Origin: Treponema sp. J25
GTDB taxonomy: Bacteria > Spirochaetota > Spirochaetia > Treponematales > Breznakiellaceae
Reading direction: 5' to 3'
Assembly (NCBI RefSeq): GCF_004343725.1
Contig: NZ_PTQW01000033.1
Span: forward strand, 1 to 64,000
DNA: 64,000 bases
Positions within the stretch are counted from its first letter, which is position 1. Each line of letters begins with the position of its first letter. The notes beneath the pieces are model-generated. The model had not been told where the DNA came from, ran no database searches, and saw only the letters and a program-made list of their open reading frames with translations. The translations under genes were made by a program, and so were the position numbers. Below, piece by piece: positions 44,322 to 48,968 of the stretch.

Positions 44322-46727
44322 CTAGCGCAGTATGGCTTCCCGGCGTTGCCGTTCTTCCCGTTCTTTTCGTAACCCTAACTCGAGCAGCTGGCTTACATCG
44401 ATGATGAGAGATACCGACCCATCCCCTAAGATAGAGGCGCCGGCAATACCTGGCGAGGCGGTAAATTGATCCCGCAGGGGTTTAATGACCACATCTTCTT
44501 CCCCAATAAGGCTATCTACCATAAGGCCCATCTTTTTTTCCGCCGTCCCCACGATAACCACAAAGTAATAGTCCCGCTGTTCATCGGTTTTAATACCAAA
44601 CAGTCGATTTAGCCGAAGCAGGGAAATGACATCGTTACGTACATTGAATACTTCGTAGTTGTCTATCATGCGAATGTCCGATGGCTTTATCCGGTGGCTT
44701 TCGATAACCGAGGTAATAGGAATAGAGTAGATTTCCTTTCCCACCCGAACAAGGAGCCCCTGAATAATGGCCAGCGTAAGGGGAAGTTTGATGATAAAGC
44801 GGGTTCCCCGTCCCCGTTCTGAATGGACCGTTACCGTTCCATTCAGTTTTTCGATCTGACGCCGCACCACATCGAGGCCCACACCACGGCCTGAAATATT
44901 GGTAATTTGCTTTGCCGTAGAAAAACCGGGCTCAAAAATAAGATTAAAGGCTTCCACATCGGTAAGGATCTTGTTGGGATGGATAAGGCCCCGCTCTATC
45001 GCCTTTGCCCGAACCGCTTCTACATCGATTCCCTTTCCATCGTCGGCGATTTCAATGATGATCATGTTCCCTTCGTTACTTGCCTTAAGGAGTACCGTGC
45101 CGGTTTCATTCTTGCCCGCCGCACGACGATCCTCGGGAGATTCTATACCATGATCAATGGAGTTACGGACCGAGTGCATGATGGGATCTAAGAGATCTTC
45201 GATTACCGACTTATCCAGTTCGGTTTCTTCCCCCTCTATAACAAGGTTCACCTTTTTATTAAGGCTCTTGGAAAGGTCCCGGACCAGCCGGGGGAAACGA
45301 TTAAAAATCTGGCTGATGGGGACCATGCGGATCCGCATCACCCCTTCCTGAAGTTCTCCCGAAATTCGCCCCAGGTTTTGGGCGGTCGAGCGGAATTTGT
45401 TAACATGGGCCTTCAGGTTCACCTCGATGGGATCAAAGAGGGTAAAGAGATCTCCATATTTCTCCAGGATTTCTTTGCGGATTTCCTTTACGGTCCGACC
45501 CTTCTGGATAGCATCCAGATATTCCGGAAGAGTATCGAAGAGATCCTTGATTTTTTCCCGATATATCGTTTCTATACCCTGCAGTTGGGTCATGAGTTCC
45601 CCAAACTGGTTCGATATCTGATTGAAGGTCGCCTTGGTGATTACCGTTTCAGAAACCAGGTTCAGCAGGTTATCGATCCGACGGGAATCGACCCGCAGAA
45701 TTGACCCCATGTCTTTCAGATTCTTCTTTTCGCCCTCCTCAGCTTGATCGCCATTCTGGCTTTCTTTTGATTCAAGCTTTGCCGTTTCAAGCACCTGGGA
45801 AGGAGAAGGGGCTATGTCTTTCTTACTGGTTGTTGGAAGAGGTTCTCTTTGCGTATCGGTCCGCGGTGGCTTTTCCGCATCTCCACTAGGAATCGAAGCT
45901 GTCGTCGGAACAGCGGCTTTTCCCGGTACGGATACTTCTTTTGTTAATTCTTCCACCGTAGCAGTGATGGTAACGTCCGGAATTTGAACGACCCGTTTAA
46001 TCTCCTCCGCCGAGTGATGGGTCGCAAGGTAGTATTCCACCACCGGGAAAAAATTATCTTCGTAGAGTTGCTCAAAATCGGGGTTGGTTTTCAGAATCGT
46101 TCCCTTGTTCTTAAGGGCCGCAAAAACCTGGATTCCCCCCACCGTGTTCATGACGTTATCTTCGTTAAATGTCACCGTGACCTTGTAGATCCCCTGCCCC
46201 TCCGCCGCGTGTTGCTTCATTTCGAGGATTTCGTACTCGGAAACAGAAGCGGTGGCAACCTTGGGCCTTGCCTCTTCCTTGGGCGGAACGGATGCGGCGG
46301 CCTTCTTGGGAGAAGACCTCTTTGTCCCCTCGGCAGGTAAAAGGGCGGTAAGACGACCTTCTATCCCTGAGATATCTTCACGATAGACTTCCCCCTGCAT
46401 CCGGGCATTGAGCATGGCCTTGATGATATCGATAGCCTGGAGCAGTATATCGATGACCGATTCATCGACCGTAATATTCCCCGATCGAATTGCATCAAGG
46501 ACATCTTCTACAAGATGGGTAAAATGGGCCAGTTCTTGCATTTCCACCGTAGCAGCCCCGCCCTTCAGAGTATGGGCAGCCCGGAAAATCTCATCTACCG
46601 CATCTCGATTTGCCCCTTCTTGCTCTAACACCAGAATATTCTGTTCCAGTGTTTCCACCTGCATTTGGGCTTCACTAAAGAAGTCCTTCAGAAGTTCCTC
46701 GTTATTTGGATCTAAATAGTCACTCAT
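44322..46727 (-). CDS. cheA: Chemotaxis histidine kinase CheA
   Basis: Receptor-controlled kinase. 801 residues from ATG 46727 (MSDYLDPNNEELL); a TTG at 46751 adds 8 doubtful residues. The Hpt domain (1-110) has phospho-accepting His52 in AAHTLKGG. A P2-like region lies at about 165-260 and a Pro/Ser-rich linker to 335. The dimerisation domain starts ILRVDSRRIDNLLNLVSE (about 343) and is longer than in E. coli. The HATPase (about 490-650) has HSVRNSIDHGIE, ADDGKGID and GRGVGLDVV. The CheW-like domain runs 655-790. No Shine-Dalgarno sequence is apparent. First gene of the che operon. Confidence 0.95.
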   Translation of the reverse strand: MSDYLDPNNEELLKDFFSEAQMQVETLEQNILVLEQEGANRDAVDEIFRAAHTLKGGAATVEMQELAHFTHLVEDVLDAIRSGNITVDESVIDILLQAIDIIKAMLNARMQGEVYREDISGIEGRLTALLPAEGTKRSSPKKAAASVPPKEEARPKVATASVSEYEILEMKQHAAEGQGIYKVTVTFNEDNVMNTVGGIQVFAALKNKGTILKTNPDFEQLYEDNFFPVVEYYLATHHSAEEIKRVVQIPDVTITATVEELTKEVSVPGKAAVPTTASIPSGDAEKPPRTDTQREPLPTTSKKDIAPSPSQVLETAKLESKESQNGDQAEEGEKKNLKDMGSILRVDSRRIDNLLNLVSETVITKATFNQISNQFGELMTQLQGIETIYREKIKDLFDTLPEYLDAIQKGRTVKEIRKEILEKYGDLFTLFDPIEVNLKAHVNKFRSTAQNLGRISGELQEGVMRIRMVPISQIFNRFPRLVRDLSKSLNKKVNLVIEGEETELDKSVIEDLLDPIMHSVRNSIDHGIESPEDRRAAGKNETGTVLLKASNEGNMIIIEIADDGKGIDVEAVRAKAIERGLIHPNKILTDVEAFNLIFEPGFSTAKQITNISGRGVGLDVVRRQIEKLNGTVTVHSERGRGTRFIIKLPLTLAIIQGLLVRVGKEIYSIPITSVIESHRIKPSDIRMIDNYEVFNVRNDVISLLRLNRLFGIKTDEQRDYYFVVIVGTAEKKMGLMVDSLIGEEDVVIKPLRDQFTASPGIAGASILGDGSVSLIIDVSQLLELGLRKEREERQRREAILR

Positions 46728-46775
46728 GACGATGATAATCTTTATACACAAATGAACTTACGTCAAGGCTTTTTG

Positions 46776-46804
46776 TTGTTTCTGTGACATAAACATGCTA
46801 AAAT
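46776..46804 (+). promoter_or_regulatory. Predicted promoter of the outer-membrane protein pair
   Basis: TTGTTT (46776-46781), 17 bases, TAAAAT (46799-46804), followed by AAGGAG and ATG at 46825. It lies in the 97-base divergent gap with cheA. Confidence 0.5.
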
Positions 46805-46824
46805 TAAGAAAGGAGTTAACCTAG

Positions 46825-48079
46825 ATGCTCATAAAAGAACGAAGTTTTTTTCAAAAGCTTGCAGGATTGGTGGTGGGAAGCTACTGCTGGATTACCATCG
46901 TTGTAGGGACCCCAGCTCTACCTGCGGCGGATCTCACCGTTCCCCTCTTTGAGATAGCAAGTTTTGGAACTATTACGGACAATACCTTAAAGGTAAGTTC
47001 CCTGGCACGGACGACGCTGGCACTGCAGGGGGGCTATAAATACGGAGCAACCCTGCGACTGGCCCTGGCTTCCCGGGATCTCAGCAAAAGCCTGGGATAT
47101 GGGACACTTACTCTTTCTCCTGTTTCAGCGGCCCCCACCGCTGATGATTATAACAAACTGGTAGATAGACTTAACAATCAGGCATATCTGGGTTTTGAGC
47201 TTGCCAAGGTCCGGGCATCCCGGATTTTTAACCTGCCCCTCGAATTTTCCTATTTTATAGGGTATGGGGATATTCTCTGTTCGGGGGATGATTTTTCTTT
47301 TTATTTTGGAAGTCCCCCTATTGGAAGCGGTTTCCGGGGTCTTTCCTACTTTCCCCAGGGAATCAATGGGGACATGCTTAATCAGTACGAGGGGATCCAT
47401 CAAATTATTGGAACGGGATTACAACTTACCGGCATGGGAAGTACCAGTATCGTACCAATGTTCTACCTATACCAGGATGGGGCCATGCTGGACTCCACGA
47501 CGGGCTTACCCCAGGAAGGGATCTATTCGGCGGATCTTCGCCTTTTAGTAAACACGCCCCTCGTCAAATTTGAATTTTTCGCCGGTGCCACCTATCCTTA
47601 CGAGTCCTGGGGCCTGTATCGGGGTGGGATTCTTGCCTATTTTTCCACCGGCAGTGGGGCGGATTTTCTCGCCCAAATCGGAATTCCTGCGTGGAAGGGA
47701 GGCGAAGCCTTCAGTATTGATAACCTGTATGTTCTTTTTGAACCCCGGATGCACTTTGGCCCTGTGGGATTCGCCACCACCGTGTTTTATCACCCCATCT
47801 GGTACCGTCAACGGCAGTATCCCTCAGAACGGGGCAGTACCGATATCAACATTCAACTTTATTTCAGAAATGAAGATGCTCTTCTGGGGGGGTATAGAAA
47901 ACACCCTCTATTTCCGATCATCTCCTACAGAGGATACTCTTTCTTGGAGAATTGCTCCCTTCTTACGGGTAACCACCGATGGTTTACGATGGGATTGGAA
48001 GGTACGGATTAACCCCCTGGCGTATCAAAACATTCCTTCCATGTTTGAAGTATATCTTAGTGTACGGACGGCATACTAA
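46825..48079 (+). CDS. Outer-membrane beta-barrel protein, frame broken at a G7 tract
   Basis: Predicted exported barrel protein. The N-terminus has a long hydrophobic signal (about 10-35, ending PALPAADL), then repeated amphipathic strands rich in Gly and aromatics. The first frame ends at 48012 in an unlikely tail (HRWFTMGLEGTD). If one G is dropped from the seven at 47886-47892, the protein continues as IENTLYFRSSPTEDTLSW to FEVYLSVRTAY, about 417 residues, with strand pattern and a C-terminal aromatic residue typical of outer-membrane barrels. So the gene is either phase-variable, frameshifted, or carries a sequencing error. No family is recognised. Followed 1 base later by a second barrel-like gene. 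Confidence 0.72.
47886..47892 (+). repeat. Poly-G tract (G7) inside the barrel gene
   Basis: Seven consecutive G at the exact point where the reading frame must shift by one base to restore the barrel's C-terminal strands. Homopolymer G tracts are known phase-variation sites in Treponema surface-protein genes. Confidence 0.9.
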
Positions 48080-48080
48080 C

Positions 48081-48968
48081 ATGAAACGAACTATTTTGTC
48101 CCTGTGCTTAGTGGTAACCTCTTCCTTCATGATGGTACAATCGCTGGATCTCACGATTAGTGGAGGATACGGGAACTTCCTGTTTGATTCCTCCCGTATC
48201 ACTAGTCTTCAAAGTGAGAATAAGGCCTTTTCCGAGCAGTCCTTCATTTTGGCAAGCCTGGGGGCCCAGGAAACGGTGGCGGAAACTACCAAAATAACGA
48301 TCCTCTACGAACGGGATCCGATTCTCCGGAACATCCTGTATACCAGCCTTTTTTATGACTTAGGTTTTGCTACCGTTCAGGTGGGTCCCTATTTTGGTCT
48401 TTTTAACACGGCCAACCTTCAGATTACCCCGGGACTTTCCATGGCTCTTCAAATAGGTATTCCTGGTCTCGTGTTTGGAACCTTCCGGAGTGACACAACC
48501 CTCGGAACAGGGCTCCAGGTCCCTGGCGATTATGTCCAGCAGAAAAGCGAACTGGGTCTTTGGATCTGGGGCACTCAAATTCTTACCAAATTTATCATCC
48601 AGAGCCGCAGTTTTTCAGAACAAAAAACTGCGTCCCTTATCATAAAAGACGAACAAACCCGCTACATCCTTGTGGCAGACATATTCAAGAAGAATGTTCC
48701 GTATCAGGTAACCACTACCATTGGATACCTGACCATGAGTCGATCCTACATTACTACTGCGACCACAGACACCGATACGATTGGGGCTATCATCCTCGGC
48801 CTGGATGGTTCGGCAAAAATCAACAGTCAGCTTCGCCTTCTTGGGGCCTTTGAAATGCCCCTCTATTGCTGGGGGATAGGAGGACTCAAGAGCCCAGCGG
48901 ATACCACCTTTTTCTATCAAGTCACCGCGGGTTGTGTGATAAGTTTCGACCCATTCTATAAACCGTAG
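48081..48968 (+). CDS. Second outer-membrane beta-barrel-like protein
   Basis: 295 residues from ATG 48081, chosen because it begins a clear signal peptide (MKRTILSLCLVVTSSFMMVQS); the longer frame from 47979 overlaps the barrel gene upstream. The mature part alternates polar and hydrophobic residues with Gly and aromatic-rich strands (LYTSLFYDLGFATVQVGPYFGLF) and ends QVTAGCVISFDPFYKP. It is probably co-expressed with the preceding barrel gene and may form a pair with it. No family recognised. Confidence 0.68.
   Translation: MKRTILSLCLVVTSSFMMVQSLDLTISGGYGNFLFDSSRITSLQSENKAFSEQSFILASLGAQETVAETTKITILYERDPILRNILYTSLFYDLGFATVQVGPYFGLFNTANLQITPGLSMALQIGIPGLVFGTFRSDTTLGTGLQVPGDYVQQKSELGLWIWGTQILTKFIIQSRSFSEQKTASLIIKDEQTRYILVADIFKKNVPYQVTTTIGYLTMSRSYITTATTDTDTIGAIILGLDGSAKINSQLRLLGAFEMPLYCWGIGGLKSPADTTFFYQVTAGCVISFDPFYKP

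What the first reader, a model, noticed from the sequence alone, without database searches (positions are those of the whole stretch)
46825..48079. Outer-membrane barrel gene broken at a run of seven G: a second phase-switch candidate
Removing one G at 47886-47892 joins the first frame (to 48012) to a second that supplies the missing strands and a C-terminal FEVYLSVRTAY typical of outer-membrane barrels. The break sits exactly at the homopolymer. Poly-G tracts control several surface proteins in Treponema pallidum. A sequencing error or programmed frameshift are alternatives.
Basis: partly seen in the sequence, partly recalled or inferred. Interest (0 to 1): 0.76.

Follow-up and report, generated by a model that had tools for sequence, protein, structure and literature searches.

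The report
Frame-broken porin-like gene, ordinary homopolymer
A spirochaete gene for a barrel-shaped outer-membrane protein, whole in nearly all relatives, is split between two reading frames near a run of seven Gs; this looks like a recent accident or a sequencing slip rather than an evolved on/off switch.

Summary
Frame one (46825-48012) and frame two (ending 48079) encode the two parts of one conserved barrel. A profile of relatives matches them as positions 13-341 and 343-411, in different frames. An AlphaFold model of an intact relative is an 18-strand porin-like barrel; the last four strands and the terminal aromatic lie after the break.

The phase-switch reading is not supported. In 34 distinct relatives the site lies in one open frame, with G runs of 2-6 made by a Gly-Gly codon pair, so no tract is conserved. 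The run is short (7), late in the gene, and ordinary here: 29 of 34 G/C runs of 7 or more in 196 kb sit undisturbed inside open frames. The tail is about as conserved as in intact genes, so the break is recent or not real. Homology cannot place the break more closely than about 47856-47895.

Most likely: a private one-base length change, in the DNA or only in the assembly, that silences an ordinary porin gene and perhaps its coupled downstream barrel. Better poly-G switch candidates lie elsewhere in this genome: two G13 promoter spacers.

The parts
46825..48012 (+). First frame of the porin-like barrel gene (395 aa; about the last 43 residues out of frame with the family)
47886..47892 (+). G7 run lying over a conserved Gly-Gly codon pair; likely but unproven place of the frame break
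47856..47895 (+). Bracket within which homology allows the change of frame
47893..48079 (+). Second-frame tail: last four predicted strands and C-terminal aromatic
48081..48968 (+). Downstream gene (295 aa, signal-peptide-like start, barrel-like by eye), starting 1 nt after the second-frame stop; conserved neighbour
   Evidence: 22 of 24 relative loci have it
44322..46751 (-). Divergent cheA-like gene, conserved neighbour (named from its sequence; not tested against families)
   Evidence: 23 of 24 relative loci

Best explanation
This is the single copy, in a spirochaete of the Gracilinema/Breznakiella family, of a conserved porin-like outer-membrane barrel encoded next to cheA and just ahead of a second probable barrel. 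In the sequenced copy the frame changes by one base near the G7, most likely by a length change in that codon-derived run. The change is private and recent: either a real slippage mutation in the sequenced clone or an error of the assembly (I put the error at about 0.45 and the mutation at about 0.33). If real, translation ends at 48012 without the last four strands and the terminal aromatic residue that the barrel-insertion machinery recognises (established knowledge), so the product should not be inserted. Ribosomes would also stop 68 nt before the next start instead of 1 nt, which may lower the downstream gene (inference). Shown: the two frames, their homology, intact relatives, barrel fold and neighbours. 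Inferred: slippage at the run, loss of function, loss of coupling.
For: The two frames match consecutive parts of one family profile. Tail-minus-body identity is -0.066 (17 relatives) against -0.045 for 145 intact pairs, so there is no decay. 29 of 34 G/C runs of 7 or more in 196 kb of this genome are undisturbed inside ORFs; only this one turns non-coding after the run. The fold is porin-like: pLDDT 87, top match C. jejuni MOMP, E 3.8e-9.
Against: The low rate of breaks at such runs (1 of 34 G/C runs) argues against a generally error-prone assembly. The change of frame is not pinned to the run, and the nominal best hand-over is about 25 bases before it. No second strain or reads could be consulted.
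Confidence: 0.78

Rival explanations
1. Phase variation: the G7 changes length at a high rate, switching the barrel (and through coupling the downstream gene) on and off.
For: The break bracket contains a G7, unlikely by chance (0.5%). The tail is still conserved. The gene encodes a surface barrel. T. pallidum tprL tracts vary over 7-11 G (PMC7864442, passages). The same genome has long poly-G tracts.
Against: Not conserved in 34 relatives. The run is short and about 85% along the gene. G7 runs are common and quiet here. The window's genome has fewer G9 sites (34) than many relatives.
Confidence: 0.16
2. Programmed ribosomal or transcriptional frameshifting joins the two frames.
For: The frames overlap widely (47570-48012), so a shift anywhere there gives a full product.
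Against: Relatives are in one frame with no run of 7 or more. A +1 shift on G codons has no conserved signal; none was sought further.
Confidence: 0.02
3. Established pseudogene.
For: Single copy broken. Another member, in G136, is also split. The family is not found in 83 of 147 genomes searched, so the gene may be dispensable.
Against: Tail identity is as in intact pairs and there is no further stop in either frame's homologous part.
Confidence: 0.04

Closest known systems
Poly-G promoter phase variation of T. pallidum OMP genes (tp0126, tprE/G/J, tprL)
   Same: Spirochaete, outer-membrane protein gene, G run.
   Different: Those tracts are in promoters (PMC7864442, passages); here the run is late in the coding sequence and not conserved.
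Intragenic poly-G/C translational phase variation (Neisseria and others)
   Same: A length change in a G run would shift the frame of a surface-protein gene.
   Different: Cut-off used there is G>=9 (PMC5953494, passages); here G7, with no evidence of length variation.
Sequencing indel errors in early T. pallidum genomes
   Same: Apparent frameshifts in genes intact in all other genomes.
   Different: There settled by resequencing (PMC3769245, passages); here no reads.
16-18-strand porins (C. jejuni MOMP, OmpU, AlgE)
   Same: Fold: best Foldseek E-values 1e-8 to 1e-9, TM about 0.4-0.5.
   Different: 5-12% identity among the 50 listed matches; no Pfam, NCBIfam or PDB sequence match.

Membership tests
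Phase-variable gene (simple-sequence contingency locus) | Hypermutable tract above the length threshold | tested here: not met
   G7 against the G>=9 cut-off in PMC5953494; but tprL tracts of 7-11 are reported
Phase-variable gene (simple-sequence contingency locus) | Tract kept in relatives | tested here: not met
   Maximum G run 2-6 in 34 distinct relatives
Phase-variable gene (simple-sequence contingency locus) | Tract length varies within or between strains | not testable with these tools
   One genome of the species; no reads
Porin-like outer-membrane barrel | Barrel fold with C-terminal strand ending in an aromatic | tested here: met
   Model of an intact relative: 18 strands, Foldseek to porins; second frame ends in Y
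Porin-like outer-membrane barrel | Membership of a named family | tested here: not met
   No match of note in Pfam, NCBIfam or PDB sequences
Programmed frameshift gene | Conserved split frames and slippery site | tested here: not met
   Relatives in one frame at the site

The most novel reading that the evidence does not exclude
A lineage-specific, newly arisen contingency switch: a Gly-Gly codon run has lengthened into a slippage site that toggles, through translational coupling, a whole two-barrel operon beside cheA in a spirochaete not closely related to T. pallidum.
Probability: 0.13. Interest if true: 0.5.

Novelty: new member of a known kind. Interest (0 to 1): 0.2.

Why it matters
As it stands, modestly. 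It identifies an unnamed, widely conserved porin-like family with fixed neighbours (cheA and a second probable barrel) in this spirochaete order, and shows that a short codon-derived G run is not by itself a sign of a switch. If switching were shown, it would be an intragenic control of surface permeability in a spirochaete, where the poly-G cases I read of are in promoters.

Tried and rejected
Pfam gave only one sub-threshold, irrelevant match to frame one. NCBIfam, and PDB by sequence, gave nothing. A codon-score test of frame change at runs left the G7 undecided, because the second-frame score after the run is weak (2.3); a longer-span version flagged it. Locating the break by profile failed to choose between positions. 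The first protein-based scan of genome contigs found nothing; a narrower alignment worked. A possible second break at a G7 in L075:11038 proved to be upstream of a gene start. In G136 another family member is split in two frames near a T8 (L134 about 1449-1482), with a further apparent frame change near its start; I did not settle whether that is real or an assembly error. The paper search naming Breznakiellaceae with phase variation listed no paper on that family among the five shown; it does not prove absence from print.

Full report
What is there. The window lies in a 3.18-Mb draft genome (66 contigs, 99.88% complete). Its nearest relatives in the collections are Gracilinema caldarium, Breznakiella homolactica and Treponema MAGs. 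At 46825 a gene with an AAGGAG motif before its start opens a 395-codon frame that ends at 48012. A second frame, open from 47570, ends at 48079. The G7 at 47886-47892 lies in both.

Are the frames one gene? Yes. A first search with frame one found the family in 23 of 58 genomes, once in its own. Of 22 loci examined, 20 hold complete genes, each in one frame; two are cut by contig ends. In a profile search of 147 genomes, 64 match. The window's own gene is hit as positions 13-341 in one frame and 343-411 in another. The second-frame tail alone scores 58.7 bits, while frame one after the run scores -3.2. One other genome, G136, also has a split member, broken at a different, A/T-rich place. The other genomes with two matches have both in an open frame of the same length or on two contigs.

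What the site looks like in relatives. The run lies over a Gly-Gly codon pair at the start of a predicted strand. One of these (L095) runs to its contig end, and one further locus (L100) did not reach the site. A run of six is therefore a normal product of codon choice (five rows, four distinct: L006/L085, L087, L089, L095), and a tract of 7 is not conserved.

Where is the break? Homology gives a bracket of about 47856-47895. Hand-over points across it score 503-509 bits (25 best listed), the best being 47859. The G7 is the obvious slippery element in that bracket, and only 0.5% of such brackets in this genome would hold a G/C run of 7 or more (2.5% for any base). So the run is the likely, not the proven, site.

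Is the break old? No. The tail differs from the body in conservation by -0.066 on average over 17 relatives, within the range of 145 intact pairs (mean -0.045, 5th percentile -0.139).

Is G7 special here? No. The genome has 522 G7 positions, counting overlaps, and 34 G9 positions in 14 runs. In a 196-kb sample (window, its contig remainder and 120 kb of contig C3) there are 34 G/C runs of 7 or more. 29 lie inside open frames with positive coding score on both sides, 1 (this one) turns negative, 1 has no ORF and 3 are unclear. Of 129 A/T runs of 7 or more, 88 are undisturbed, 1 turns negative, 19 have no ORF and 21 are unclear. Thus the assembly is not generally broken at runs, and coding G7 runs are not generally switches.

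What the protein is. AlphaFold on the relative L079 with an alignment of 22 sequences gives a barrel of 18 strand elements (pLDDT 87.2, pTM 0.81). Foldseek's best match is C. jejuni MOMP (E 3.8e-9, TM 0.50), followed by OmpU, AlgE and OmpF. The Gly pair lies at residues 346-347 of the model, so the last four strand elements begin at or follow it. No Pfam, NCBIfam or PDB sequence family covers it.

Neighbours. A divergent cheA-like gene is found in 23 of 24 relative loci and the downstream protein in 22 of 24. In 15 of those 22 an ATG lies between -1 and +1 nt of the barrel's stop (my count). In the window the spacing is 1 nt if the second frame is read and 68 nt from the first frame's stop. 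Translational coupling, and its loss, is inferred.

Reading. A private, recent one-base length change, real or in the assembly, of an ordinary gene. Published precedent exists for both sides: T. pallidum poly-G tracts in promoters change expression and vary in length (PMC7864442, passages read), while 84 coding indel errors were corrected when T. pallidum Nichols was resequenced, three of them false frameshifts in genes intact elsewhere (PMC3769245, passages read). Without reads the two cannot be separated. The switch reading keeps about 16%.

A better lead nearby. Two near-identical loci of the same genome carry G13 between TTGACA and TATAAT or TACAAT, the layout described for tp0126. They are listed under things noticed.

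Noticed in passing
L060:2035-2047 (G000:C37:4934-4946) and L061:1994-2006 (G000:C41:2693-2705): Two paralogous loci (93% identical over 151 bases) with G13 between a TTGACA box and TATAAT (20-nt spacer) or TACAAT (21-nt spacer), read on the strand of the run in each case. In L060 the promoter faces a short secreted 120-aa ORF; in both a divergent Peptidase_C39 gene lies on the other side. A far better candidate for a phase-variable promoter than the window's G7.
   Followed up: partly
L059:2018-2035 (G000:C53:27517-27534): A run of 18 C near the end of a contig, in sequence with no ORF of 90 aa or more across it.
   Followed up: no
G001-G034 (same family), counts: Many relatives hold hundreds of G9 positions (for example 1245 in G010) against 34 in the window's genome; possible wide use of poly-G tracts in these spirochaetes, or an assembly effect.
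   Followed up: no
L134:880-2018 (G136): Another member of the barrel family split into two frames near a T8, with an apparent further frame change near the start.
   Followed up: partly
L072:1445 (G000:C3): An A9 run after which the coding score of a 232-aa ORF turns negative; possible further frame break.
   Followed up: no
44322-48968: Conserved arrangement cheA-like (divergent) / porin-like barrel / second probable barrel across this order, with no family name for either of the latter two.
   Followed up: partly
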